Positions 50,045-64,000 of a DNA stretch of 64,000 nt are shown here, piece after piece (the stretch's first letter is position 1; every line of letters starts with the position of its first letter). The DNA is from Bacteriovoracaceae bacterium (GTDB taxonomy: Bacteria > Bdellovibrionota > Bacteriovoracia > Bacteriovoracales > Bacteriovoracaceae), in NCBI GenBank assembly GCA_947377285.1, contig CANCFT010000004.1:1-64000 (forward strand), given 5' to 3'. A program made the translations under genes and the position numbers. The notes beneath the pieces were generated by a model that saw nothing but the letters and a program-made list of their open reading frames with translations, searched no databases and had not been told where the DNA came from.

Positions 50045-53000
50045 TTAAAATCCTTTCCCTAATTTATCAAAATTACCAGATGTGGCCATTAAAGAAAGTT
50101 CACCATCTTTAAAGAGCCATTTATTACCCAACGGATTTAGAAAATCTATCCCGACACTCCAGTTGAAATTCCCTGAAAATATTGCCCCTGTTCCAATTGT
50201 AATTGTAGGAGAAGTATAAGAAATGGCAGCCGAAGTAGAGCAATTAGTTATCGCTGGAGCAGTTACAACACAGGCATTCTCAGTTCCTCCAGTGAAGACT
50301 GCGCCACTTAAATTAAAAGCATAATTACCGTTTATATAAGATAACGAATTAGGATTGAAAAATAATCGAGTTAGGCTTCCAAGGTTAACTGAAACAACAT
50401 TATTTAACGATGAATGATCTATTTCTAAACGTCCCTTTATATGAGAATCGCTCAGTACTCCTGTAGAAGAATTATAGGCCACAAATGGTGAAATATTTCC
50501 CGCTGTATTTGCAGACCAATCTTTTGTATTCACAGAACCTTCAAAAGAAATTTGTGAGACAGTTCCGGAGTTGAAGGCGGTCACACCTGCATAATATTCA
50601 TTAGAAGTCATCGCGTAGGCATCTTCCCAAGTTGAACCGTTGCAATAGCGACTTGTCCCTAAATCAGTTCGACGAATATAATTTCCAAGATTGCCCCCAG
50701 TACAAGTTCCATCAGTGCTAGTCATATTGCCTAAATTTGACATACCAAGAGTACGATTCACTGACCCGAAGGCCCTTACGGCATCAATTGTACCAAAATT
50801 TCGACTGGTAATTGATCCCGCGTAGATTGCAGCACTACCAACATTAGGTCTTTCTAAAGTTATTAAATTATCAATTTCAGAATTCGTTATCGTTCCATTA
50901 TTCATTCCAACAAGACCACCAATATTAAAAGCGGTTGCCGAATTTGTGACAAGGTCTAGTTTAGTATAATTAAGTTCGCATCGACTCATATTGATATTAT
51001 CAATAGAACCCGAATTAATACCGGCAAGAATACCAACTGACATCGCAGGAATTACTGCAGCGTAACCACTGCTGGCGATTTTCCCTAAAGCGAGATTTAA
51101 ATTTTTAATACTAGAGCCCGCTTGCAGATCTTGAAATAAACCAATATTACCAGTCACGGTTCCATCAATTGCAAAATCAATTAAAGAATGACCATCTCCA
51201 TCTAAATTGTAAACTCCGCCTGCTTTTGATGGAATTGTTGCACCAGCAAATAATAAATTTTTCTTTAAAATATAAAAAGTATTTGGTTGCATTCCAATAA
51301 ATTGAGAAGCTGAACAAATAGTTTTTGGGTCAGCAGCAGCTCCAGAGCCAGCTTGATTAGCATAGAGTCCACTGCATTCTCTTTTTAAATAGGGAACTTC
51401 TAATTCCTTAGTTAGCTCCCAAGTCAGACGTGGAATATCTTTTCCACTCCCTTGATCGTTAACGTCCCAACTCCAGCCCGTATAATTTGCTAAAGTGGTT
51501 GGGCCTGTAAAATAAGTAGCAGGATCAGTAATATTAAGCGGATTTGAAACTAAAGAATAAACATTACATAAATTAGTTGCGAAATTTGCACCAATGGCAA
51601 AATTTCGTCCTGGTGTGGTTGTCGAAGTTGGACATGCTGGTTGTGTTGTCACAAAGGACCCAATAATTAACCCTTCAGAAGTATCGTTGTTACTTCTATT
51701 ATTTTTTTTGAAAACAATAGCAATATTTCTCTCTAACGTCCCAGCATAGGCCCGACCAATTAGCCCACCCATATTTACAAAACCATAAGTCGATCCATCG
51801 GTGAATTCACTAGAAATTAAAAGCCCAGTTACCATTGAATTAGAAATTGTTATATTAGTGGCATCACCAACAACTCCTCCGATGACTCTATTGCCCTCCA
51901 CCGTTTTTAACTTAACGACAGCTTGGTCAATAACTTGATTTGTACCTGTGAAATAAGCTTGTCCAAAAAGGCCTCCTACCTTTGATTCACAAAGAGCTAC
52001 ATTACAATGAGCTTTTACATCTGCATTAACCGAGGATTGAAAAACTAATGACGATCCGCCTGACCCTGAAGCATAACCCGCGATTCCACCAACAGTTGAC
52101 ACACCATTGATACCGCCAGAAAAATGGACATCAGTGAAATGAGATTCATAACTATTTCCGACTAATCCCCCAATATTTGAATTCCCTGAGACATGACCAA
52201 AAACCTTTATATTTTTGAAATTAGAAAAGGAACTCATTCCTGCAAGCATTCCAATTGAATCATAAATTTGAGGATTATTATTATCACATTCTATAGCAGC
52301 TCTATTAATCGTTAAATTTGAAATCGTACTATTCATAATCTTTCTAAAAATTCCAATGGAATTGTCATTGCCCGCAGGTGAAACATCCTTGCAATTAATC
52401 ATAAAATTTTCAATACGATGGTTATTCCCATTAAAATTCCCCGAAAACTGTGTCGTTCCGTCTCCTATAGGTTTAACCGGGCTAAATGCCAAATTGAGAT
52501 TATTCAAAAGCTCAAAAGAGCTATTAGATATAGATGTAAAAGGCACTTTTCCTAAGAGCAAGAATTGATCCTTAGTACAAATTGTATACGGCAAATTCAA
52601 TGTGCCTTTACCTGAAGCAAATGAATTTGGATCAAGACGACGAGGATCCTGGCAGACTGGAGCTGCATCTGTTTCAAGGTAATAGCGATCAGTTGCTTGA
52701 ATAGATAATGGATTGTTGGTAAATTTTTTAAATTTAGTTGAGGCCTCTAAGGCAATTGTTGTAAAGCCCTTTGATTCGTCACAAGGAGTGTCTGAATAAA
52801 AAACTTGTGCCGTCATTGGGAAACCATTGAGGCCTGGTTGAGGCATATTGATTGTATTAAGTGCAGAATAATCAGGTGAGGAGTATCCACCACTCATATT
52901 AGTATCAACAGCAAAACATTTTGAAACAATAGCAGGGGCCGGTGCAAGATCAACGGCCGCTCCAAATCGTTTGTATTCTGGGACAACTAAACGAAAATAA

Positions 53001-53563
53001 GTCGCATAACCTTTATTATTTGTTGCATCTACTCCTGGAGTTGAGTCACACGCAGACGTTTGAGAAAATGACGTTATATTGGCAATTGATTTACAAGAAT
53101 AGAGCGAAAGGTTGGCCAGTTTATTTTCCGTACCACCATTCGTAGCGGCCACAGAAGAGCTAAAATCAGCATCACAATTAGCATTTGATATCGTCAAACT
53201 TACTGTGGCGGCCGTTCCATTTAAAACATTGTTTAAAGATTTGGCACAAGAAACTTTTCCTCTTAAGCCAAGATCAACAGATTCAGCCGTTGTATTTTCC
53301 CAGCCAACAGCATAAAAATTCCATGTTCCATTTGGGAACTCAAGATCAGCTGTATCGCTATCTATTTTTTTAGCAAATGACATACTTCCATCAACTGTCC
53401 GGCCATAAAACATTAATCCGTTATTGGCCTTGGTTGCTAAAACACCACCTGCGGCAAAAGCGTTGGCACCAAAAATTTTAATTTTAGAAGTAGTCATTCC
53501 CGCTTTATGGGAACAAGACAGTAGAAAGCATAAAGACGCTGAAAAAATTAAAATGTTCTTCAT
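50045..53563 (-). CDS. Large surface lipoprotein with GLUG-type repeats
   Basis: 1172 residues. Lipobox FLLSC (Cys about 17). After an N-terminal domain of about 300 residues come two blocks, each opened by 'C-(Q/A)DP(R/K)...IC(T/S)xxQF' (LPYTICTKDQFLLLGK at about 330, DPKTICSASQFIGMQP at about 755). Each is followed by beta-helix repeats of the GLUG kind (NSNIGGLVGNSYES, VSTVGGIAGYASGSG, AFNIGGLVGMNNGTI). Such repeats form elongated adhesins. Cys pairs may stabilise the modules. It shares the terminator at 50009-50043 with nrdA. Confidence 0.8.
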   Translation of the reverse strand: MKNILIFSASLCFLLSCSHKAGMTTSKIKIFGANAFAAGGVLATKANNGLMFYGRTVDGSMSFAKKIDSDTADLEFPNGTWNFYAVGWENTTAESVDLGLRGKVSCAKSLNNVLNGTAATVSLTISNANCDADFSSSVAATNGGTENKLANLSLYSCKSIANITSFSQTSACDSTPGVDATNNKGYATYFRLVVPEYKRFGAAVDLAPAPAIVSKCFAVDTNMSGGYSSPDYSALNTINMPQPGLNGFPMTAQVFYSDTPCDESKGFTTIALEASTKFKKFTNNPLSIQATDRYYLETDAAPVCQDPRRLDPNSFASGKGTLNLPYTICTKDQFLLLGKVPFTSISNSSFELLNNLNLAFSPVKPIGDGTTQFSGNFNGNNHRIENFMINCKDVSPAGNDNSIGIFRKIMNSTISNLTINRAAIECDNNNPQIYDSIGMLAGMSSFSNFKNIKVFGHVSGNSNIGGLVGNSYESHFTDVHFSGGINGVSTVGGIAGYASGSGGSSLVFQSSVNADVKAHCNVALCESKVGGLFGQAYFTGTNQVIDQAVVKLKTVEGNRVIGGVVGDATNITISNSMVTGLLISSEFTDGSTYGFVNMGGLIGRAYAGTLERNIAIVFKKNNRSNNDTSEGLIIGSFVTTQPACPTSTTTPGRNFAIGANFATNLCNVYSLVSNPLNITDPATYFTGPTTLANYTGWSWDVNDQGSGKDIPRLTWELTKELEVPYLKRECSGLYANQAGSGAAADPKTICSASQFIGMQPNTFYILKKNLLFAGATIPSKAGGVYNLDGDGHSLIDFAIDGTVTGNIGLFQDLQAGSSIKNLNLALGKIASSGYAAVIPAMSVGILAGINSGSIDNINMSRCELNYTKLDLVTNSATAFNIGGLVGMNNGTITNSEIDNLITLERPNVGSAAIYAGSITSRNFGTIDAVRAFGSVNRTLGMSNLGNMTSTDGTCTGGNLGNYIRRTDLGTSRYCNGSTWEDAYAMTSNEYYAGVTAFNSGTVSQISFEGSVNTKDWSANTAGNISPFVAYNSSTGVLSDSHIKGRLEIDHSSLNNVVSVNLGSLTRLFFNPNSLSYINGNYAFNLSGAVFTGGTENACVVTAPAITNCSTSAAISYTSPTITIGTGAIFSGNFNWSVGIDFLNPLGNKWLFKDGELSLMATSGNFDKLGKGF

Positions 53564-54519: not shown

Positions 54520-55608
54520 TTATGAATTGAATTGATAAACGCGAATGTCATACATTTGAACTTTCTCAGCATTGATGATCTCTTGATGTTTAGTTGTCAC
54601 GTCAATAAACCCGCTTAAATCACAATGAGCAATTCTTAAGTAATAACGAATAACTACAATGGCCCCTGGCAATAAAGATGGTTTTATTTTTTGCATATAA
54701 TTGACTTCTAAATCACCCAAAAAATATGAAGGAACATCACTTAAAGAAAGAAAATCGTATTTTTTATTCCCCAAACTTAAATGAGTGACAAGATCGTGAG
54801 ACAAATAAAAAATCTTTGAAGTGGAATCCTTGATTCTTGTATAAGACTCAATTTGAGCTTCAACTGGAATACCCTCTATCGAATGAATTTGTCCGTAAAA
54901 GCAAAGATGAAGAAAAAAACTATTTCTAGCTAAGCAATTTGTAAACAAGCGCTCAAATGCTGCTACATAAAAATCAAAATGCGATCCATGTACATTCTTT
55001 TTTATAAAGTGACCTTTATATAAAAGAGCATTAAAAAGTGCTTTATTTCCTAGCATAAAAACAACGAGTCGCCAGCGTTTTTTAGGAAATTTATTTGCAT
55101 AATATAATAGCTGGTCTTGAAGCTTATCAAACTTAAAGAGTCCATCATATTCAGATCCAAGAAGTTTTCTATTTATTTTTGCCAAAATAGAAAAAGTTCT
55201 CTCCCACTTTCCAAGATAGAGAATCGAAGAAAATTCAATCTCTTCAAAAATCATATGAAACAACTTATAAACTTCTGCCTCTAAAGAAAGTCTCTTAAAA
55301 ATTTCTTTTCGGTCTCCAGCAGACTTTTTTTCATTGAAAGGAAAGTACCCCCAAAAAACTAAAAAATCATGATAGCTCAATTGCTTATAAGTGGCCTCGC
55401 GAAGTTTAGCTAATAAAATTTGTTCTGGAGACAAATCAATTAAAGTTAATTCATTGACCGAGTTCCCAACCAAAGGCAAAGCTCTCCCGCCACTACCACA
55501 AACACTAAAAACTTTTGTAGGTTTATAAAAATCAACTAAGGCGATCTCAACAGTCGTGTCTTCATTACCTAATGTATAATTTAAACCTTGAAAATATTTT
55601 TTTGTCAT
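54520..55608 (-). CDS. BtaA-like SAM:diacylglycerol 3-amino-3-carboxypropyl transferase family (DUF3419)
   Basis: 362 residues. SAM-binding region KVFSVCGSGGRALPLVGN (about 32-49) and ELTLIDLSPEQILLAKLREATYKQL (about 53-77), the arrangement of BtaA, where a 'D.(S/N)PaQ..l..lK' strand follows. C-terminal FLSLSDVPSYFLGDLEVNYMQKIKPSLLPGAIVVIRYYLR also fits. In Rhodobacter BtaA moves the aminocarboxypropyl group of SAM to diacylglycerol, the first step to betaine lipid; the methylase BtaB is not seen here. One nucleotide separates it from the reductase gene. The residues KSAGD (about 95-99) are encoded by a repeat copy. Confidence 0.75.
   Translation of the reverse strand: MTKKYFQGLNYTLGNEDTTVEIALVDFYKPTKVFSVCGSGGRALPLVGNSVNELTLIDLSPEQILLAKLREATYKQLSYHDFLVFWGYFPFNEKKSAGDRKEIFKRLSLEAEVYKLFHMIFEEIEFSSILYLGKWERTFSILAKINRKLLGSEYDGLFKFDKLQDQLLYYANKFPKKRWRLVVFMLGNKALFNALLYKGHFIKKNVHGSHFDFYVAAFERLFTNCLARNSFFLHLCFYGQIHSIEGIPVEAQIESYTRIKDSTSKIFYLSHDLVTHLSLGNKKYDFLSLSDVPSYFLGDLEVNYMQKIKPSLLPGAIVVIRYYLRIAHCDLSGFIDVTTKHQEIINAEKVQMYDIRVYQFNS
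55311..55325. repeat. Dispersed 15-bp inverted repeat, copy 5 (one mismatch)
   Basis: GGTCTCCAGCAGACT; first base G instead of A. Inside the BtaA-like gene, read S-A-G-D as in copy 1 although the proteins are unrelated. Confidence 0.75.
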
Positions 55609-55609
55609 C

Positions 55610-57673
55610 TTACTTTTTTTCCGATTTTTTATTTTTACTTAACTGATTCTGAGCATGCTCTCGACATAAGTTAAATTCTTCATCAGTAATAAAGCCATTA
55701 TGTCCCATTATATTTGATAATCGAACACCATGCTCCTTTGCTAATTTATCTATTTCAATAACTTTTTCATAATTAATATTTCGAGAGAGAGTAAATGATT
55801 CAAACTTACCTTCCATTGCTAATAATGCCGTTTCAGCAAGGCAAGCATAAACAATATTCCCCTCCAATCCTAAATCAATCTTTATATTTAAATCTTTACC
55901 AGGGAGCTGAACTTCACCGCTGGCAATGACTAAAACATCAGGTCTTTTTATAGCTTCTTTTTCACTTATATCAAAAGGACGAGACACATCACAAATGACA
56001 CAACCGGATTTAACTTTCATGATATCTAAAATAGTTTTCCCTTGGCCAGATGTCGTTGTGATGATTAAATCAGATTCGCCGCTATGAGAATCAGCATCTG
56101 TAGAGATAATTATATTTGCACTCGGATTAATACTGAGAATTTCTTCTCTGAGTTCTATTAATTTATAGGCCCTCGGAGCAACAAGAATGACTCTATCCCA
56201 CGAGAGTGATAGAATTTTTGCTGAAACGGCCCCAATACTTCCAGTAGCACCCACGACCATTACCGTTCCTGTGAAATGGTTCTCTCTTTTTTTAACAAAA
56301 CCAAGTTTCTCTACGGCCAATTTTGCTGCCCATAATGTAGAAGCAGATGACAATGAGTTCCCCGTGGTTACAGGTATTGGGCTCAAGCGATCTATTGTTA
56401 CACCTGCATCACCAACAATTTTAGTATAAGCACCAAGTCCCATAATTTTAGATCCAGCAACTTGAGCTTTGTCACAAAGTTTGAGAATTTTTTTATAAAT
56501 AACATCGGCTTCTTTTTCCATCAACTTCTTAGGAGTTTCAGTGACGGCATAAATTAATCCTTCTACTCTTTTTCCATTTTTCTCACTAACAATCCCCTCT
56601 ATTTTTCCATAGAAAAACCCTGGTGAAAAAGACATTACTTCCTCAATGGCCGTTTCAAAAAATGATGTGTACTTTCTATTGATCGCCCTAAAAAGTGGAT
56701 GCATTAAAAGATTGCGTGAAGTTAGTGGATGTATAACAAACGAAAAAGTTGTAATTGAATCAACATCTTCATTAAAAACTTTAATTTCTGGAGCAAGCTT
56801 TAAGTCTTCAACAAGTTTAACGACATCGTCATCATTGATAACACTGCCGACACCTTTTTTTAAAAGAGTAATTCCTTCTAAAATAGAATAATTAATTTTA
56901 GTATGTTCTGAAAGTTGGGGCAGACAGATCAAGGCTTCTTTAAGACCTGCCTCTTTAAGTTTAAAGGCCATTCCTTCAGAGACAATATCAGTTATAAGAG
57001 TTTTGCCTTTTAAGTGTGCCAAATTTAAAAAAGTAATATTTGCTTCGTTCCCAACTAAAAGATCACAAGAAAGAAATTCATCTAAGGCCCGGTTTTTGAC
57101 TAATGATTCATCTGAAAAATTGGGGACATGACTTTTTTTAACTTTCATCCTAGCTAAAACAGGTGTGAGTAATTTTAAAAATTGATTAAGCCCTTTACTA
57201 GTATAAATATTAAATGGCAGCTTCATTAAGAAATAAGGGTCGGCCATTACTAAGTCATTTTCTAGATCTTCTAAAACCTCGACAAAACTTTTTTGCAATG
57301 CTGCTGAATAAAATCCAATACGGCGATTAAAAAGATACGGTTTATTTTTTAAGTAAAACATTCGAAGAGCATAAGGAATGTAGACATCCTTAATAATTTG
57401 ACCATCAACTGTCGGTGTAAACTTAGCAGCTACTTTTATACGGTAGGTATCTGGATGAAGAAAAAATCCTTTTTTAAATTTAATCTTGGCAGGAAGTCCA
57501 GAAATACAAACCACATCACACAATCCATCGTACTTTTTAATGATGCTTTCTGTGAGTTCGATATCAAAATTAGTAGAATATTGAGTGATGCGATAAGTTT
57601 CACCAAAGAATTCTACTTCTTCATCAAAATTGTATTGATCTTGGGCAAACGCCAAAGAAAGAATGTGTTTCAT
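55610..57673 (-). CDS. Long protein with C-terminal acyl-ACP reductase (AAR)-like domain
   Basis: 687 residues. From about 310 to 655 it follows the cyanobacterial acyl-ACP reductase: FVIHPLTSRNLLMHPLFR, MGLGAYTKIVGDAG (about 411-424), TTGNSLSSAS, nucleotide loop VVGATGSIGAVSAKIL (G475-G481), and CLAETALLAMEGKFESFTLSRN with Cys611 at the position of the AAR thioester cysteine (Cys294 in Synechococcus). AAR makes fatty aldehydes from acyl-ACP with NADPH. The first 300 residues have no counterpart in AAR and I do not recognise them. No aldehyde-deformylating oxygenase is present, so an aldehyde or alcohol rather than an alkane is the likely product. Confidence 0.75.
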   Translation of the reverse strand: MKHILSLAFAQDQYNFDEEVEFFGETYRITQYSTNFDIELTESIIKKYDGLCDVVCISGLPAKIKFKKGFFLHPDTYRIKVAAKFTPTVDGQIIKDVYIPYALRMFYLKNKPYLFNRRIGFYSAALQKSFVEVLEDLENDLVMADPYFLMKLPFNIYTSKGLNQFLKLLTPVLARMKVKKSHVPNFSDESLVKNRALDEFLSCDLLVGNEANITFLNLAHLKGKTLITDIVSEGMAFKLKEAGLKEALICLPQLSEHTKINYSILEGITLLKKGVGSVINDDDVVKLVEDLKLAPEIKVFNEDVDSITTFSFVIHPLTSRNLLMHPLFRAINRKYTSFFETAIEEVMSFSPGFFYGKIEGIVSEKNGKRVEGLIYAVTETPKKLMEKEADVIYKKILKLCDKAQVAGSKIMGLGAYTKIVGDAGVTIDRLSPIPVTTGNSLSSASTLWAAKLAVEKLGFVKKRENHFTGTVMVVGATGSIGAVSAKILSLSWDRVILVAPRAYKLIELREEILSINPSANIIISTDADSHSGESDLIITTTSGQGKTILDIMKVKSGCVICDVSRPFDISEKEAIKRPDVLVIASGEVQLPGKDLNIKIDLGLEGNIVYACLAETALLAMEGKFESFTLSRNINYEKVIEIDKLAKEHGVRLSNIMGHNGFITDEEFNLCREHAQNQLSKNKKSEKK

Positions 57674-57702
57674 AAACTTTTTCTTGTTAATGTTCTTTAA
57701 CT

Positions 57703-58710
57703 TTAAAGTTGAGTTCCGCGGAATAAAGAGCTTTTATAATGTTTATAAACGCTCTCAGACAACTCTGGTAACTCTTCTATCGTACGAGACTTATCGTAAG
57801 AGAGTTTGGAAAACATGAAAGGTATTAGAGCGCTGGGAATTCCCAATCGTTTTAATAGGGAATTGTGAAAGGGATTTCTAAAAATTGGAATATAATCGAC
57901 TTCTAGACCTAAAGAAGTATTTAAATCAGTTAAAAATTCACTGATAGTTGGAATTTCATAACTAATTAAATGATAAGTCTTTAAGAATTTCTCACCTTGG
58001 TCTCGAAGAATTAAAATCGTAATAAACCTAGCACAATGATCAACTGGTATTAAGGGCAATTTTGAACGAGGATTAAAACTTAATGGAATATAAGAAGTCA
58101 GTTTTAAAATTGAAGAATATTTTTTCATGAGATCTATGAAATAGTAAGGCCCATCTCGCTTTTCAATTTGACCATTTACCGAATCACCAATGATAACTCC
58201 TGGTCGAATAATTCTAGTTGGTATTTGATCCCTTGTTTCACGGACAATTTTTTCTGCTTTGTATTTTGTTTCAGAATAATAATCGTTGAATTTAATTCTT
58301 TCAGGCAAAAAATCTTCTTCCAGAAAAAACGATTGGTCATCTCCTACCGCAATGGTAGAAATATAAAAAAATGATTTCATTTTTTTCATTTTTTTAACTA
58401 AATTAAGAGTATTTTGAGTTCCTACGACATTTTGCAAAAAACTCTCAGCATGACCGGCCTCTAGATCATAAAGAGCAGCGGCATGTATACAAAAATCACA
58501 TTCAGAAAGTACAACTTGTTTTAACTCAGGATTTTCAATAATTTCTAAATGAGTAATATCACCTTTGACTATCAAAACATTCGAATAATTTTTAAAAATT
58601 GAATTGTTTGGTGAGCGAGATAATATATAGATTGTGTCAAAATGAGGTGCAAGTTCTTTGACTAGGTATTGTCCTAAAAATCCTGTTGCACCTGTTAAAA
58701 ATATTTTCAT
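57703..58710 (-). CDS. NAD-dependent epimerase/dehydratase-type (extended SDR) reductase
   Basis: 335 residues. Nucleotide loop FLTGATGFLGQYLVKEL (7-13), DITH acidic strand end, active-site Ser in YISTIAVG (about 118) and YSETK (Tyr145-Lys149). Extended SDR close in style to the reductase domains acting on thioesters and to CerR-type ceramide-pathway reductases. Substrate unknown. Lies between the lipid kinase (27 bp) and the AAR-like gene (29 bp); its ribosome site is weak. Confidence 0.8.
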   Translation of the reverse strand: MKIFLTGATGFLGQYLVKELAPHFDTIYILSRSPNNSIFKNYSNVLIVKGDITHLEIIENPELKQVVLSECDFCIHAAALYDLEAGHAESFLQNVVGTQNTLNLVKKMKKMKSFFYISTIAVGDDQSFFLEEDFLPERIKFNDYYSETKYKAEKIVRETRDQIPTRIIRPGVIIGDSVNGQIEKRDGPYYFIDLMKKYSSILKLTSYIPLSFNPRSKLPLIPVDHCARFITILILRDQGEKFLKTYHLISYEIPTISEFLTDLNTSLGLEVDYIPIFRNPFHNSLLKRLGIPSALIPFMFSKLSYDKSRTIEELPELSESVYKHYKSSLFRGTQL

Positions 58711-58737
58711 ATATAGGATCTTTTTTTATAACATTTT

Positions 58738-59697
58738 TTACATTAGAGATACTTGAGTGCATAAATTTACTAAATCAATTTGATCATTGGGGGAAAAAAC
58801 TGAGAGAAATTTAGGATGACATTTAATATCCCAACTTGAGTCCATGTTAAGAATTTCTCCATCACCAAAAAAAGGTAAAACCTCTGGATCTATTAAACTT
58901 ATACTAGCCTCAGTTGTTTCAAAACTAATTAAATTTTTATCATTAATCGGGTAATTACCATTTAAAATTTTTAAAATACATTGGATTAATTCAATTCGAT
59001 TTTGATGCTTAAATATGGTTATATTAACTTTTCCATCATGATGATTTGTATTTGGTGCTACAACAAAATCACCTGCAAGTGCTGGTTGATTATTGACTAA
59101 AATTAAGGATGATAATAATGTTTCATTAAACTCAAGCGACTTAATTTTAAATTTATAGCTTTTAATCCCTCGAGTAAGTAATTTGTTTGCGAGAAATAAT
59201 GAGTAGATATTTTTCCCTGATAGCTTCATGAATTTTTTAAAATTAGGATAAACTGTTCTCAATTCGTTTATGTCCCTTGCAACATCGGCCGCGAAGCCTA
59301 AACCACCATTTGTGGCCATAAATTTTCCATTAATACTTATTAAATCAATTTTTTTCTTTTTATTTTGGCGAATTGTTTGAGTGATATGTTTGATATTAGA
59401 ATTTGCACCAATGACTCTTGCAAAATCATTAGCTGTACCACCAGGGATTACTAATAAACTTACTTCAGTTCCGGCCAGTCTTTGAATAATTGTATTTACA
59501 GTTCCATCTCCACCAACTGACATAATGGCATCTACATTATTTGCAACATCGAGATCGAGTTGTTCATAAAGTTCATCTAATGATTTTGGCGATTGGTATT
59601 CAATTTGACTTCTAAATAAAGCAGCATTAATTTTCCCTCGCCAATCTTGGCTACCATTTGAGGCCCGCTGATTTAGATAGACAGAAATGTTTTGCAT
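58738..59697 (-). CDS. Lipid kinase of the diacylglycerol/sphingoid-base kinase family
   Basis: 319 residues. Catalytic GGDGTVN (62-68) and PGGTANDFAR (85-94), NGGLGFAADVARDI, AGDFVVAPNTNHHDGKVNITIF and a C-terminal FFGDGEIL. These are the DgkB/YegS/LCB-kinase hallmarks, so it should phosphorylate a lipid hydroxyl using ATP at the membrane. AAAGGA lies 6 nt upstream. It starts a possible sub-operon after a 114-bp gap that holds a 15-bp palindrome. Confidence 0.88.
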   Translation of the reverse strand: MQNISVYLNQRASNGSQDWRGKINAALFRSQIEYQSPKSLDELYEQLDLDVANNVDAIMSVGGDGTVNTIIQRLAGTEVSLLVIPGGTANDFARVIGANSNIKHITQTIRQNKKKKIDLISINGKFMATNGGLGFAADVARDINELRTVYPNFKKFMKLSGKNIYSLFLANKLLTRGIKSYKFKIKSLEFNETLLSSLILVNNQPALAGDFVVAPNTNHHDGKVNITIFKHQNRIELIQCILKILNGNYPINDKNLISFETTEASISLIDPEVLPFFGDGEILNMDSSWDIKCHPKFLSVFSPNDQIDLVNLCTQVSLM

Positions 59698-59785
59698 ACG
59701 ATCCTTTCAAAAATTCTAAAGATATTCAATTTTCTTAATTCTAACTCTTGAAGGGATTATTAGGGGAATTCGTAAAAATTTTACA

Positions 59786-59800
59786 TACATGAACCATGTA
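59786..59800. promoter_or_regulatory. 15-bp palindrome in the gap before the lipid kinase gene
   Basis: TACATG-AAC-CATGTA in the only sizeable gap of the cluster (59698-59811). Candidate operator or part of an internal promoter region. Confidence 0.35.
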
Positions 59801-59811
59801 CGAAAGTTAAC

Positions 59812-61134
59812 TTATCGTTTTATTAAGGAAACATAGAGCGGATTCTTAAGCATCAAGGTCGTTTGTGGATTGCTCTCAATATTTCCGGATAAATTGACTA
59901 ACTTAAAATTTAAAACAAGAGACCTAACAGAAAGAATTAATTGTATCATCGCTAAATTTTCACCAATACAAACCCGGGGGCCTGCACCAAAGGCCAGGTA
60001 TTTTGTACCTAATTCTTCAACCGAGATTCGCTCAAATCGTGAAGGATCAAAAACTTCAGGATTTTCATAATAACGTTCTGAGTGATGAATTAAATAAGGA
60101 GAAGTAAATAAGCAATCATCTGTCTGTATTTTCATACCTTCATATTCATCATCTTGAACAGCATACCTAGTTAAAGCCCATCCAATTGGCCTAAGTCTTA
60201 ATGTTTCGTACAAGACATTTTTAGTAATAGAAGCGCGCTCTAAATCTTGAATGGAATCAATTGATAAATTAATTAGTTCATCATAAATTTTATCTTGGTA
60301 TATCGGATTTTCACAAAGAAAATAAGTGAGCCAAGACATCGTGAGCGATGTGGTTTCATAGCCTGCGAAAATTAGCATCTTGACTTGATTTATCAAGTCC
60401 TCTTCACTCATTTTATTTGATTCAGAATGATAAACTTTAAGTAAACGGTCTAGGACTGAATTTTCTCTCGCCGGCGTGTGATTAAAGGCCGCCGTTTTAA
60501 CTAAATGATTTATTCTCAAGAGGGCCGATTCAAATTCCGAATCAGCTTTTTTATATAATAATTTATTAAGAAATCCAGACTTAATAAAACGATAATTTAA
60601 TTCATTAAAATATTTATTTAAATACAATAAGTCCTTATTAAATATCTCAAACTGAGATGAAAAATCATTACCAATTAAAATATTTGTATTGAGCTTAAAA
60701 ACTAATTTTGAAAAAAAATAAACAACATCCATTTTTTTTAAATCTTCAATATTAAACTCAGAAGAATAAAAGCAAGAAATAATTTTTTTCATTTCATCAA
60801 AATTAGATTCAAATACTTTTTTTGAAAAAATTGGCATTAGTGGTCTGCGAAAATTAACCCACTCGTCCCCTGAAGAAGTAAAAATATTACGCCCAAAGGC
60901 AATAGTTAAGTTTGTTCTTTTTTCATAATTCTTATAATTATCTACTAAAAAATACTTCACAGCTTCAGCAGTTTTAGCTATTACTAAATTTCTTTTCCCA
61001 AGTCTTACTCGAACCAAAGATGCTGTTTTTTCGGAGTTTGCAACTTTGGTAAAAAACTTTATTTTACCAAGTAATAAAATTTCAAGGTTTGAGCTGCCAA
61101 AAGTACTTTTATAGAGAGGTATTTTATTATTCAT
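59812..61134 (-). CDS. Cytochrome P450
   Basis: 440 residues, full-length soluble bacterial type. I-helix AGYETT (257-262), K-helix ETLR (310-313), PERF-like FDPSRFE (about 362), haem loop FGAGPRVCIG with Cys389. The N terminus lacks a membrane anchor. No ferredoxin or reductase gene is adjacent. Its start overlaps the GNAT stop in TAATG, so the two are translationally coupled. Probable hydroxylation of a fatty chain is inferred from context only. Confidence 0.92.
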   Translation of the reverse strand: MNNKIPLYKSTFGSSNLEILLLGKIKFFTKVANSEKTASLVRVRLGKRNLVIAKTAEAVKYFLVDNYKNYEKRTNLTIAFGRNIFTSSGDEWVNFRRPLMPIFSKKVFESNFDEMKKIISCFYSSEFNIEDLKKMDVVYFFSKLVFKLNTNILIGNDFSSQFEIFNKDLLYLNKYFNELNYRFIKSGFLNKLLYKKADSEFESALLRINHLVKTAAFNHTPARENSVLDRLLKVYHSESNKMSEEDLINQVKMLIFAGYETTSLTMSWLTYFLCENPIYQDKIYDELINLSIDSIQDLERASITKNVLYETLRLRPIGWALTRYAVQDDEYEGMKIQTDDCLFTSPYLIHHSERYYENPEVFDPSRFERISVEELGTKYLAFGAGPRVCIGENLAMIQLILSVRSLVLNFKLVNLSGNIESNPQTTLMLKNPLYVSLIKR

Positions 61135-62102
61135 TATTCTACCGTTAAATTAAATAATTCATAATGATGGCTTAGACTTAAATCAGCAGCTACTTTGGCA
61201 AACAAATATTCGCTTTTTGCCCCTTCTCTAATAAGTGCAGCAGCTCCTCTTTTTATTTTTTTTTGTTCGGCCCTCTGTAAAAACTCAAAAACTAATGCAG
61301 AAGACAGACCACTTGATTGATAATCTGGATGAATCAATATACTTTTAAATACAGCTAGTGGCCCTGATAAATCTTCATCTATTAAACAAAAAGCATATCC
61401 CACGATAAGATTATCCTCTGTAGCGATAAAAGAGGATAACGAATTATCTAACAAAGATAGCTTTGAAAAGAGAAATTGATTATATTCTTGTAAAGAAATG
61501 TCTTTGTAAAAATGTGACTCTTTAAATGTTTCACAATTGAGTTCATAACATCTTTTTAAAACAGTTTCAGGATTTTTCTTAAACTCAGCATCAAAATCGA
61601 ATATTTTGTACCCATCTAATAGAGCTTTCTCATACGAAGGCACGAAATATTTTTTTAAAAGCCCTATATCATCAAAAAAATGAGTTAGGTATTTTTTATC
61701 CGAATTAAAGTGAGCTTTATTAAAGGCCAACTTTAAATGCGCATTACCCGTTGGTTCCCACCAATAAAGATGATCAAACCCATTCGTTTTTAATCGATTG
61801 CCAAACCAAATTGAAAAATCAATTGGGCCTATAACTTGATTCTTAGAAAGTTTCTTGGCGGATGTTTTTAATAAAACCTTAAAATGATCTAGTGGATAAA
61901 AATCTTCACTAGTGATTGAAAAACATCCAAAAAATAGCTTATCTGGAAATAGTGGGTCTGTATAAGTCAAAAAATGCCCACAAATCTCTTGATTATTTTT
62001 TTTAAAAACAAAAAAAGACGTATCAGATTTCTTAAATCCTTCAATAAAATCTCTACCGTATTTTTGATAAAAAAGATCTAAGTCAACACATGGACCTATC
62101 AT
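61134..62102 (-). CDS. GNAT-family acyltransferase
   Basis: 322 residues. C-terminal GNAT core at about 215-320: SFIATEDNLIVGYAFCLI, then the acyl-CoA loop FKSILIHPDYQSSGLSSALVFEFLQRAEQ. The N-terminal 200 residues are an extra domain (FFVFKKNNQEICGHFLTYTD, GPIDFSIWFGNRLKTNGFDHLYWWEPTGNAHL) as in two-lobed N-acyltransferases. Substrate unknown; an amine of a lipid intermediate would fit the neighbours. Overlaps the upstream dikinase gene by ATGA and the P450 gene by TAATG. Confidence 0.75.
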   Translation of the reverse strand: MIGPCVDLDLFYQKYGRDFIEGFKKSDTSFFVFKKNNQEICGHFLTYTDPLFPDKLFFGCFSITSEDFYPLDHFKVLLKTSAKKLSKNQVIGPIDFSIWFGNRLKTNGFDHLYWWEPTGNAHLKLAFNKAHFNSDKKYLTHFFDDIGLLKKYFVPSYEKALLDGYKIFDFDAEFKKNPETVLKRCYELNCETFKESHFYKDISLQEYNQFLFSKLSLLDNSLSSFIATEDNLIVGYAFCLIDEDLSGPLAVFKSILIHPDYQSSGLSSALVFEFLQRAEQKKIKRGAAALIREGAKSEYLFAKVAADLSLSHHYELFNLTVE

Positions 62103-64000
62103 AGATTCTCACCCAATGCTGGTTTTAAAATAAGTAATCCTTTAGTAGCATTTAACTCGACTGTCATTCCTGATTTAATTTTTGAAACAGGGGAACCATT
62201 TAATCCTACAATCGTCGGAAGTCCCATTTCTCTAGCAACAACTGCTGAATGCGATAACAATGAACCACGCTCAATTGCAAGCCCCTTGCAGTTTGGATAT
62301 AAAGGAACCCATCCTGGATCTGTTCGGTAGGCCAAAAGAATTTCTCCATCAATCATCTTGGCATCCTGAATATTCTTAGCGACCAAAACAACTCCATTAA
62401 CTATTCCTGGAGAACAAGAAATCCCTTGAAAAACATTAGGGTCTAATTGAACAAATTTATCTTTTAATAAGTCCAGAGAACTTAAAAGTTGAGGATATCT
62501 AAATGTAGCGGTTGCGGCCCCGACTGTAATAAATCTTTCAGGTGGGTCAGATTTTTTTAAATTTTCTTCATACTCAGTCTTTCTAATTAAGGCCAGCGCG
62601 CGAAGATTATTTGTAACTGAAACACCATGAATATAATCAAAAATTTCTTCAACTGTTAAAAAGAAAATATCGCGAGGATGATCAATAATGTCTAATTGAA
62701 AAAATTTGTCACCAATTACACGAAAAATTCTGCGACTTGTTCCATAAGAACGGGTCCTAGCAAAGCGCAAATTCTCTCTATTTCGAACAGCTTTTCTTGC
62801 ATGTTTTAATACCCATTTAAAAAGGCTTTTTTTAAGTCCAAATAAATGAGAATCAACTATTGTCTCAGCATTTTTACGTATCAAGACTTCATTGGCTTCC
62901 ATCTCAGGAACTGAATATTTTTTATTTTTCAAATAACCAAGAAAACTAGAAACGGCCATTGTAGGATCTTCATGTAAATCCTTTTCTTCTAATTTCTGTT
63001 CATTTGAACAACGAAATCCAAAATCATTTATATAACGCTGAAATCGTGAATAGAGTTCTGGGAATTGTTTATTTTCCCAAATTATTTCCATAACAGCTTC
63101 GACGGATAAAGTCGTAAAATACTTAGCATCATTGGCATAAATACGGTCAAACCATTCGGCCATAATCATAAGATCTTTAGTTGGGCGAGTGGAAATAATG
63201 TCTCCTTCACCACATAGAAGATCATTTTGTATTTCGCTTTGTCCTTCTGTATTCAAAATCCATTTGGAGGTAAGTTTTCTCAACGTTCCAAAAAAGATCA
63301 TTACTAAAAAATCATTTATAATTGGTGCTTTCCATTCTAAGAGAATCTTTTTTTCAATATTTTTGTAAAGAAAATAAATGGACTGCAAAGACATCTCTTC
63401 TAATTTCATTTGATCTAATTCATCATAAGTTGATTGATGAAGATCCATGAATTTTTTAACTGTTTTATCAACAATAATAAATTGATATAATAATTTTGAA
63501 TTCATTTTAAGTTTAGTAGCAAAGGAATAGCGAGGGGCGGTGGATTCGATATCAAAATGCTTTTTCTTGTTTACGTCTATATTGTCTTTTACTCCAAGCA
63601 TCGTTTCCATAAAGCCTTTAGAAGTAGAGCTTCCAGGCATTAAAAACAATACACGGTACCAATTGAGAAGATTATAATAAACTCTACCGTTAATCTGACC
63701 CAACATATGGGCAAATGCATGTTGGTGATTATCTAGGACGTCTTGTGGCACTCCAGCGAGGTCACAACAAATGCGGTAAACGGTATCATAGCCTTTTTTG
63801 GCATAACTAAATGTTAGTGGTGTTGTGACTCCACTAAAGCTTTCAACAATATTGGAATTATCCCAAAGAATGGGAATATCGCCCATTAACAATTCGTTAA
63901 AAATATTTTCATTAGGTAAAACAGTTATAGGTCGCATTTGTAAAATATAAAGCTTACCTTTTTCAAGGGCCCACTCAATATCAATAGGCATCTTAAAATG
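62099..64000 (-). CDS. PEP-synthase-like dikinase, rifampicin-phosphotransferase type (5' end outside window)
   Basis: The frame is open to the window edge (HFK precedes MPIDIEWALEKGKLYILQMRPIT), so the ATG at 63991 is internal. The visible part begins with the end of the PPDK ATP-grasp domain (DIEWA...LYILQMRPIT), continues with about 490 residues of a helical middle domain, and ends with the swivelling phosphohistidine domain: GISCSPGIVNGVV ... GLAIERGSLLSHSAVVAREMGLPTIVG, phospho-His about 580 residues after the internal ATG. The PEP-binding barrel of true PEP synthase is absent. This order is that of rifampicin phosphotransferase, so the middle domain probably binds the molecule to be phosphorylated. 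First visible gene of the cluster. Confidence 0.85.
   Translation of the reverse strand, partial: HFKMPIDIEWALEKGKLYILQMRPITVLPNENIFNELLMGDIPILWDNSNIVESFSGVTTPLTFSYAKKGYDTVYRICCDLAGVPQDVLDNHQHAFAHMLGQINGRVYYNLLNWYRVLFLMPGSSTSKGFMETMLGVKDNIDVNKKKHFDIESTAPRYSFATKLKMNSKLLYQFIIVDKTVKKFMDLHQSTYDELDQMKLEEMSLQSIYFLYKNIEKKILLEWKAPIINDFLVMIFFGTLRKLTSKWILNTEGQSEIQNDLLCGEGDIISTRPTKDLMIMAEWFDRIYANDAKYFTTLSVEAVMEIIWENKQFPELYSRFQRYINDFGFRCSNEQKLEEKDLHEDPTMAVSSFLGYLKNKKYSVPEMEANEVLIRKNAETIVDSHLFGLKKSLFKWVLKHARKAVRNRENLRFARTRSYGTSRRIFRVIGDKFFQLDIIDHPRDIFFLTVEEIFDYIHGVSVTNNLRALALIRKTEYEENLKKSDPPERFITVGAATATFRYPQLLSSLDLLKDKFVQLDPNVFQGISCSPGIVNGVVLVAKNIQDAKMIDGEILLAYRTDPGWVPLYPNCKGLAIERGSLLSHSAVVAREMGLPTIVGLNGSPVSKIKSGMTVELNATKGLLILKPALGENL

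What the first reader, a model, noticed from the sequence alone, without database searches (positions are those of the whole stretch)
54520..64000. Seven-gene lipid-modification cluster combining acyl-ACP reductase, P450, lipid kinase, GNAT, SDR, RPH-like dikinase and BtaA-like transferase
Seen: seven minus-strand genes, mostly overlapping by 1-4 bp or separated by 1-29 bp, with one 114-bp gap. Known: AAR reduces acyl-ACP to aldehyde; BtaA moves aminocarboxypropyl to diacylglycerol; DgkB/LCB kinases phosphorylate lipids; bacterial ceramide pathways use a GNAT-type acyltransferase, an epimerase-type reductase and an LCB-type kinase. Sphingophosphonolipids have been described chemically in Bacteriovorax (formerly Bdellovibrio) stolpii. 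Inference: this operon makes an unusual membrane lipid or lipid metabolite. The combination matches no single pathway I know, and no serine palmitoyltransferase or BtaB is visible.
Basis: partly seen in the sequence, partly recalled or inferred. Interest (0 to 1): 0.85.

Follow-up and report, generated by a model that had tools for sequence, protein, structure and literature searches.

The report
Two-module lipid-making operon of Bacteriovoracaceae
A nine-gene bacterial operon, kept in pieces that are swapped between relatives, looks like the recipe for an unknown amino-acid-bearing lipid, and its make-up fits no pathway that I know of.

Summary
The seven minus-strand genes are as described, but the window cuts the operon: RPHL runs to 64843, then come a UbiA-type enzyme (64853-65722) and an OleC-like AMP-ligase (65726-67174): nine genes. 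The 114-bp gap divides two modules. Module 1 (BtaA-like, AAR-like reductase, SDR, lipid kinase) follows the genus; module 2 (P450, GNAT, RPHL, UbiA, AMP-ligase) is exchanged. Four marker proteins co-occur over 368 phylum genomes. In 80 loci with UbiA and RPHL, formyltransferase and GNAT never meet (32 and 37 loci, 11 neither), nor do BtaA and CarS-like (52 and 8, 20 neither). Other clusters put an HMG-CoA-reductase-like enzyme and a kinase where reductase, SDR and kinase stand here. Best reading: acyl thioester to alcohol to phosphate, built into a lipid by RPHL and UbiA, with a 3-amino-3-carboxypropyl head from BtaA and a capped amine. Reactions, order and product are inferred. The sphingolipid parallel is not supported: the likely serine palmitoyltransferase lies elsewhere. 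Real and conserved; no description found; chemistry open.

The parts
54520..55608 (-). BtaA-like (DUF3419) protein, expected to move 3-amino-3-carboxypropyl from SAM; module 1
   Evidence: Pfam PF11899 101.4 bits, cut-off 28.2; present in 49 of 61 AARL loci
55610..57673 (-). AARL: two-domain protein. C-terminal half = acyl-thioester reductase of the AAR/PigE type with the Cys kept (C611, ACLAET); N-terminal half of unknown function; module 1
   Evidence: NCBIfam PigE 151.6 and AAR 55.7 bits, both under cut-off; solved relatives 4ppm (listed as 'Aminotransferase'; PigE by recall) and AAR 6jzq; AlphaFold/Foldseek best 6jzu AAR, TMt 0.72; invariant C611 in 11 of 11
57703..58710 (-). SDR of the thioester-reductase / fatty-acyl-reductase type (YxxxK seen in the sequence); module 1
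   Evidence: NAD_binding_4 127.8 bits; nearest solved structure MxaA 4u7w (that this is its reductase domain is recalled)
58738..59697 (-). lipid kinase of the DAGK/YegS type (GGDGT seen in the sequence); module 1
   Evidence: DAGK_cat 67.8 bits, YegS_C 35.7 bits; diacylglycerol-kinase structures
59698..59811 (.). 114-bp gap, the border between modules 1 and 2; holds one weak terminator-like hairpin on the - strand (window 59784-59802)
   Evidence: L002 7803-7785; 10 such sites in the region against 6.6 +/- 2.7 in shuffles, so no evidence by itself
59812..61134 (-). cytochrome P450 (FGAGPRVCIG heme motif); module 2
   Evidence: PF00067 204.9 bits
61134..62102 (-). GNAT N-acyltransferase; module 2; a formyltransferase is found instead in other loci
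   Evidence: PF00583 37.2 bits
62099..64000 (-). RPHL: RPH/PEP-synthase-like phosphotransferase, 914 aa in full (62099-64843), His of the swivelling domain kept; module 2. Beyond the window: UbiA-type enzyme 64853-65722 and OleC-like AMP-ligase 65726-67174, both - strand
   Evidence: PPDK_N 235.4 and PEP-utilizers 63.2 bits for the full protein, UbiA 47.6, AMP-binding 83.4; H865 invariant in 10 of 10; solved relatives 5hv2/5fbs, listed as phosphoenolpyruvate synthase (rifampin phosphotransferases by recall)

Best explanation
A membrane-lipid (or lipid-like metabolite) biosynthesis operon in two modules. Tail: AARL reduces an acyl thioester to an aldehyde, the SDR takes it to an alcohol, and the DAGK-type kinase phosphorylates it. 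Backbone: RPHL (ATP-driven phosphotransferase) and the membrane enzyme UbiA use the phosphorylated tail to build the lipid. Head: BtaA adds 3-amino-3-carboxypropyl from SAM, the GNAT (elsewhere a formyltransferase) caps the amine, and the AMP-ligase activates a carboxylic acid; the P450 oxidises. In part of the relatives a LolA-like carrier with a MacB/FtsX-type ABC transporter sits in the same block and would move the product to the outer membrane. Shown here: the gene families, kept motifs, co-occurrence, module exchange and replacement patterns. Inferred: every reaction, their order, the acceptor of UbiA, and the product.
For: Co-occurrence in 368 phylum genomes: AARL with RPHL 101 of 110, with BtaA 102 of 110, with UbiA 105 of 110; RPHL with UbiA 129 of 132. 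Functional replacement: clusters without AARL carry an HMG-CoA-reductase-like protein (thioester to alcohol) fused to an APH-type kinase (L142: PF00368 346.5, PF01636 38.8 bits; L146: 323.1, and 22.4, just under the cut-off of 23.2), or, on a Roseinatronobacter plasmid, an HMG-CoA-reductase-like gene plus a membrane protein that resembles phytol/dolichol kinases by eye, in one operon with UbiA, RPHL, DUF3419, GNAT-like and AMP-binding genes. AARL and HMGR types share none of the 80 loci with UbiA and RPHL (48 and 3 alone). AARL C-domain keeps the AAR fold and Cys. FMT and GNAT exclude each other (32 and 37 loci, 0 both, 11 neither, of 80).
Against: No product, substrate or activity is known. 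The tail set is not universal in the stretches read: L140 has SDR and DAGK but no AARL; L137 and L138 have a DAGK-profile hit but no AARL or SDR; L139 and L141 have none of the three; the aminotransferase-AAR loci L149, L151-L153, L156 have no DAGK. 31 of 132 genomes with RPHL have no AARL. UbiA enzymes normally need an allylic diphosphate (recalled); nothing here shows one, and my first idea that PigE acts on a 2-enoyl thioester is contradicted by PMC8341465 (passages). The UbiA second Asp motif is replaced by ExxRK, so even its donor is uncertain. No export gene was hit in the 20 kb read around the window's operon (L002). The phytol-kinase call has no Pfam or NCBIfam hit.
Confidence: 0.5

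Rival explanations
1. Natural product rather than membrane lipid: RPHL is a PigC/TamQ-type ATP-driven condensing enzyme that joins an amine to an aldehyde or acid, the reductase supplies the aldehyde, and the rest are tailoring enzymes, as in tambjamine biosynthesis.
For: AARL's C-domain scores best on PigE; RPHL matches PigC at 303 bits; sister loci pair RPHL with an aminotransferase-AAR fusion (PF00202 203 bits in L151) and with two FtsX permeases plus an ABC ATPase (L149, L151-L153, L156), close to the parts listed for the tam cluster (TamA, TamH, TamQ, TamL/M/N; PMC6667630 passages). Exchange of cassettes is what one expects of metabolites under diversifying selection (inference).
Against: RPHL scores far better on PEP-synthase model PRK06241.2-2 (750.8 bits) than on PigC; no PKS or NRPS family among the nine genes; UbiA, BtaA and DAGK are not in the tam parts list seen.
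Confidence: 0.2
2. An aminolipid close to the betaine-lipid precursor DGHS: BtaA acts on diacylglycerol and GNAT/FMT caps the amine in place of BtaB methylation; the other genes modify acyl chains.
For: Clear DUF3419 match (101.4 bits; 224.9 in L104); lipid kinase in the same block; FMT and GNAT alternatives both fit an amine.
Against: Does not explain why UbiA and RPHL are the most constant partners (129 of 132) or why CarS-like and BtaA exclude each other.
Confidence: 0.15
3. An ether lipid of archaeal logic: UbiA works as a digeranylgeranylglyceryl-phosphate-synthase-like ether former and CarS-like enzymes make the CDP lipid in sister clusters.
For: Nearest solved relative of the UbiA profile is DGGGP synthase 6m31 (E 4.5e-9, first-motif region only); CarS-like genes by my profile in 8 of the 80 core loci, four CarS-like proteins (three of them in such loci) confirmed by PF01864 at 27.7-51.8 bits, cut-off 22.
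Against: No PcrB/GGGP synthase in the genome (0 matches; controls ring in 7 of 14); no CarS hit in the window operon; UbiA second motif differs.
Confidence: 0.1
4. Sphingolipid or ceramide pathway.
For: GNAT, SDR and LCB-kinase-like members.
Against: The SPT-like gene sits on contig C10 with its own GNAT-like neighbour; the cluster GNAT is unrelated to that neighbour. Neighbourhoods of relatives were not searched for SPT.
Confidence: 0.03

Closest known systems
Betaine-lipid (DGTS) synthesis, BtaA/BtaB
   Same: DUF3419 SAM-dependent aminocarboxypropyl transferase
   Different: no methyltransferase among the nine genes; amine-acylating or formylating partner instead; linked to UbiA and RPHL
Prodigiosin / tambjamine parts (PigE/TamH, PigC/TamQ, TamL-N)
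   Same: AAR-type thioester reductase plus RPH-like enzyme, and in sister loci aminotransferase fusion and FtsX/ABC exporter
   Different: window AARL has no aminotransferase; no pyrrole genes among the nine; UbiA, BtaA, kinase added
Cyanobacterial acyl-ACP reductase (AAR)
   Same: fold and Cys of the C-domain
   Different: score 55.7 against cut-off 449.7; extra N-terminal domain; no aldehyde-deformylating oxygenase family among the nine genes
Archaeal DGGGP synthase / CarS lipid assembly
   Same: nearest UbiA structure; CarS-like in sister clusters
   Different: no GGGP synthase found; ExxRK in place of the second Asp motif
Rifampin phosphotransferase / PEP synthase
   Same: ATP-binding and swivelling-His domains
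   Different: the scores of RPHL on these models are under the curated cut-offs

Membership tests
Betaine-lipid pathway | BtaA-type (DUF3419) transferase | tested here: met
   101.4 bits over cut-off 28.2
Betaine-lipid pathway | BtaB N-methyltransferase in the operon | tested here: not met
   none of the nine proteins matches a methyltransferase family in Pfam; rest of genome not searched
Betaine-lipid pathway | diacylglycerol as acceptor | not testable with these tools
   needs enzyme assay
AAR (TIGR04058) | curated score | tested here: not met
   55.7 bits, cut-off 449.7
AAR (TIGR04058) | AAR fold and Cys in the A-C-x-A-E motif | tested here: met
   6jzu TMt 0.72; C611 invariant in 11 of 11 and aligned with the AAR motif; that the Cys is catalytic is recalled, in line with the title of 6jzz (C294S)
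PigE/TamH | thioester reductase joined to a class III aminotransferase | tested here: not met
   window AARL has no Pfam hit at all; 151.6 bits, cut-off 850
Rifampin phosphotransferase (NF041857) | curated score | tested here: not met
   252.5 bits, cut-off 999
PEP synthase model PRK06241.2-2 (NF004881) | curated score | tested here: not met
   750.8 bits, cut-off 883
UbiA prenyltransferases | Pfam score and first Asp motif | tested here: met
   47.6 bits, cut-off 34.2; D-E-x-K-D-x3-D invariant in 9 of 9
UbiA prenyltransferases | second Asp-rich motif | tested here: not met
   ExxRK invariant in 9 of 9 about where it is expected; the place of the canonical motif is recalled, and one search did not align that region
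Olefin beta-lactone synthetase OleC | curated score | tested here: not met
   window AMP-ligase 54.5 bits, cut-off 850
Bacterial ceramide pathway | serine palmitoyltransferase in the cluster | tested here: not met
   the only TIGR01825 match in the genome is on C10; SPT is its best model but under cut-off
Archaeal-type ether lipid | GGGP synthase (PcrB) in the genome | tested here: not met
   0 matches; assembly 92.75% complete

The most novel reading that the evidence does not exclude
A fatty-acid-made stand-in for isoprenoids: an acyl thioester is reduced to a long-chain alcohol, phosphorylated twice (DAGK-type kinase, then RPHL), and the resulting alkyl or alkenyl diphosphate is the donor of a UbiA-family transferase, giving a new lipid class with a homoserine-type, amine-capped head. 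The same logic would be met by unrelated enzymes in other clusters and another phylum (HMG-CoA-reductase-like plus kinase), and relatives would swap the head cassette as bacteria swap surface antigens.
Probability: 0.2. Interest if true: 0.9.

Novelty: new variant of a known kind. Interest (0 to 1): 0.72.

Why it matters
Nearly a third of the examined phylum genomes (110 of 368) carry AARL, including a genus with single-contig genomes, one of which has the size I recall for Bdellovibrio bacteriovorus HD100, a laboratory strain. If the reading is right, a conserved lipid or metabolite of a phylum known for predatory bacteria (recalled) has been missed, with a cassette that changes between close relatives. 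The cluster joins BtaA-, UbiA- and RPH-like enzymes, whose role together is unknown, and offers a tractable operon for testing them.

Tried and rejected
Sphingolipid cluster: set aside. OleABCD olefin/beta-lactone route: the AMP-ligase is OleC-like but far under cut-off; the hydrolase fused to it in relatives has a Ser nucleophile motif GYSxG in the 3 of 3 aligned (the Asp nucleophile of OleB is recalled); OleA was not searched for; an active OleA from Halobacteriovorax marinus is reported in PMC7064751 (passages; one search found only a reference). Chance neighbourhood of two unrelated operons: rejected, though the modules are unlinked in G042-G044. AARL as an internal duplication: profile comparison of its halves gives no relation (probability 0.7 of 100). 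Allylic substrate argued from PigE: dropped. Promoter scan not above shuffles (43 against 58.7), terminators weak. Literature: of the nine searches made, searches were aimed at this gene set or its product; their listings held no title that describes it. Only open-access papers are held, and I read no listed paper through.

Limits of the counts: neighbourhoods were chosen by AARL or RPHL hits; contig ends cut many (counted as absences). Genomes and loci are related, so the Fisher p-values (1e-49 to 1e-73) overstate independence. The RPHL threshold (E 1e-150) takes in weaker subfamilies. ORFs were called mechanically; families are my own profiles at 35 bits or more, built partly from the same loci; some hits were not checked further (the aminotransferase hit in L068, the CarS hit in L150). 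The genome lists were retyped by hand; their totals matched (110, 132, 119, 149). In one search the window's own RPHL has a long end branch (1.2) and 14 of 45 inner branches of that tree are open.
Full report
Observation. The window is bases 1-64000 of contig C4 (154,074 bases) of an assembly of 3,447,772 bases, 92.75% complete. Named relatives of its AARL are Bacteriovorax sp. and Bacteriovoracaceae MAGs, 68-85% identical (9 of 10 loci; the tenth is an Oligoflexia MAG at 36%). Past the window RPHL ends at 64843 (914 aa); a 289-aa UbiA protein (64853-65722) and a 482-aa AMP-ligase (65726-67174) follow with gaps of 9 and 3 bp; then come two subtilase-like genes by eye. Downstream lies a nitroreductase. 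So there are nine co-directional genes.

Enzymes. The 687-aa AARL has no Pfam hit. Its residues 310-683 match the N-terminal part of PigE (151.6 bits), its thioester-reductase part according to PMC8341465 (passages), and 362-651 match AAR (55.7 bits), both far under cut-off. Solved relatives are 4ppm (listed as Aminotransferase; PigE by recall) and AAR 6jzq. The AlphaFold model (mean pLDDT 72.6, pTM 0.48, ten sequences) finds AAR 6jzu first (TMt 0.72). C611 in ACLAET is invariant in the 11 aligned. The N-terminal half is unexplained; it also occurs alone, as in L072 and L073. The SDR is nearest to MxaA and other reductase domains of synthases, the kinase to diacylglycerol-kinase structures, RPHL to 5hv2/5fbs, listed as phosphoenolpyruvate synthase (rifampin phosphotransferases by recall), UbiA to archaeal-type DGGGP synthase, with an invariant ExxRK where I expect the second Asp motif. 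The AMP-ligase is OleC-like but under cut-off.

Two modules. I read 60 neighbourhoods of AARL hits from the order besides the window's (2 are stand-alone N-domains). Of these 61 loci AARL is in 61 by choice, SDR in 58, DAGK in 56, BtaA in 49, RPHL in 38 (contig ends cut several). Module 1 mostly sits in one block, though BtaA lies apart or divergent in some (L053, L054, L057, L064). Module 2 varies in strand, order and make-up. In the nearest relative, L074, identities to the window are AARL 85, DAGK 75, SDR 67, BtaA 62 but RPHL 46, AMP-ligase 44, UbiA 43, GNAT 27, and module 2 is divergent. In L078-L082, same genus, it is a formyltransferase, a hydrolase-AMP-ligase fusion, UbiA and RPHL. Trees of 48 loci: the eight same-genus AARLs are one clade (support 100); their RPHLs are not (three changes), and a tree that holds them together is rejected (p-AU 0.0002, 46 rows, two long rows left out; quick trees, one simple model, group taken from the tool's genus code; the window's RPHL is itself on a long branch). 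L075-L077 have a GNAT, UbiA and plain AMP-ligase beside an RPHL that groups with L078-L081 (set of six, support 100), so the cassette seems to be exchanged in parts as well. In G042-G044 module 2 is elsewhere in the genome.

Spread. Profile searches of 368 phylum genomes: AARL in 110 (E 1e-40), RPHL 132 (E 1e-150), BtaA 119 (E 1e-40), UbiA 149 (E 1e-20). AARL with RPHL 101 of 110, with BtaA 102, with UbiA 105; RPHL with UbiA 129 of 132. Of the AARL genomes that miss RPHL, BtaA or UbiA, 8 of 9, 6 of 8 and 4 of 5 are assemblies under 90% complete (completeness). On the other side 31 genomes have RPHL, 17 BtaA and 44 UbiA without AARL. Genus g52 holds single-contig genomes; one has 3,782,950 bases, the length I recall for Bdellovibrio bacteriovorus HD100 (the identity is recall). 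There FMT, hydrolase, AMP-ligase, UbiA and RPHL run on one strand, and BtaA, LolA-like, AARL, SDR, DAGK, FtsX permease and ABC ATPase follow on the other.

Replacement rules. In 122 loci annotated with my own profiles, 80 have both UbiA and RPHL. Among the 80: formyltransferase and GNAT together 0 (32 and 37 alone, 11 neither); formyltransferase with hydrolase 32 of 32; BtaA and CarS-like together 0 (52 and 8, 20 neither); AMP-ligase and CarS-like together 0 (65 and 8, 7 neither); AARL with HMGR-type 0 (48 and 3, 29 neither). AARL with an aminotransferase-profile hit is 2: L068, where I did not check which gene gave the hit, and L154, where the AARL mark is the AAR half of the fusion. LolA, ABC or FtsX hits occur in only part of the loci. 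The formyltransferase keeps the N-x-H and D residues that I recall as catalytic in 8 of 8 aligned. CarS-like hits are PF01864 at 27.7 to 51.8 bits in the four proteins tested, and the aminotransferase-AAR fusions score 160 to 203 bits for PF00202 in three tested, one of which (L158) has no UbiA or RPHL in the stretch read.

Other solutions for the tail. L142 and L146 carry an HMG-CoA-reductase domain fused to an APH-type kinase (in L146 the kinase score is just under cut-off); L163 has a third, by profile (670 bits). On plasmid NZ_CP121116.1 of Roseinatronobacter sp. S2, an alphaproteobacterium, UbiA, PEP/pyruvate-binding, DUF3419, a 439-aa membrane protein, a 281-aa protein and an AMP-binding gene form one operon-like row. 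The gene before UbiA runs over the record start; read across it, it is HMG-CoA-reductase-like (473-aa open stretch, 255 bits to the L142/L146 profile; residues E, K, D, H kept by recalled motifs). The 439-aa protein resembles phytol/dolichol kinases by eye only; Pfam and NCBIfam give nothing. The 281-aa protein matches my GNAT profile at 93 bits and no Pfam family. A reduction of a thioester to an alcohol, then phosphorylation, is what AARL+SDR+DAGK and HMGR+kinase have in common. That is the main argument for the tail route; it is comparative, not biochemical.

Against it. L140 keeps SDR and DAGK without AARL; L137 and L138 keep only a DAGK-like hit; L139 and L141 have none of the three in the stretch read. 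Aminotransferase-AAR clusters have no such kinase and look more like the tambjamine parts list (PMC6667630 passages), so RPHL may be a condensing enzyme. UbiA's donor and acceptor are unknown. I found no paper on this gene set in the searches named in Tried and rejected; of the papers cited I saw passages only (PMC7064751, PMC6667630, PMC8341465), the rest as search listings.

Verdict. A real, conserved, modular biosynthetic system that I cannot place in a known pathway; lipid nature likely, chemistry open. Novelty is set at new variant because the enzyme families are known and no product is; the interest lies in the combination, the replacement rules and the cassette exchange.

Noticed in passing
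G000 contig C10:9968-11098 (L147:1471-2733): Gene whose best NCBIfam model is serine palmitoyltransferase (SerpalmtaseCFB 487.7 bits, cut-off 640), next to a 375-aa protein that looks GNAT-like by eye and has no NCBIfam hit: possible sphingolipid locus, unlinked to the window.
   Followed up: partly
L072, L073; also hits in G026, G036, G037, G056: The N-terminal domain of AARL (about 310-335 aa) occurs without the reductase half, in genomes that also hold full AARL except G026, where only an N-domain hit was found; function unknown.
   Followed up: no
L142:3509-5854, L146:3367-5784, L163:6897-9248: HMG-CoA-reductase domain fused to an APH-type kinase (L163 by profile only), near AurF-like and RPHL genes.
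   Followed up: partly
L149, L151, L152, L153, L156: Clusters with aminotransferase-AAR fusion, CarS-like, UbiA, RPHL, GNAT, two FtsX permeases, ABC ATPase, LolA-like: tambjamine-like parts with lipid enzymes; a second RPHL-like gene at the far end in L149, L152 and L156.
   Followed up: partly
L144, L161: UbiA and RPHL-like genes beside a ketosynthase / AfsA-hotdog protein (PF00109, PF02801, PF03756 in L144; L161 by eye).
   Followed up: no
L124 / L126, NZ_CP121116.1 around the record start: PLSDB's gene table omits the gene that spans the plasmid record's start; it is HMG-CoA-reductase-like and lies just before UbiA.
   Followed up: yes
window 50045-53563: 1172-aa secreted lipoprotein-like ORF with GLUG-like repeats by eye; homologues lie beside the cluster in other members of the genus (cluster 11).
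   Followed up: no
L003:2126-3022 and L002:19369-19974: Trypsin-like secreted proteases in several copies upstream of the operon (by eye).
   Followed up: no
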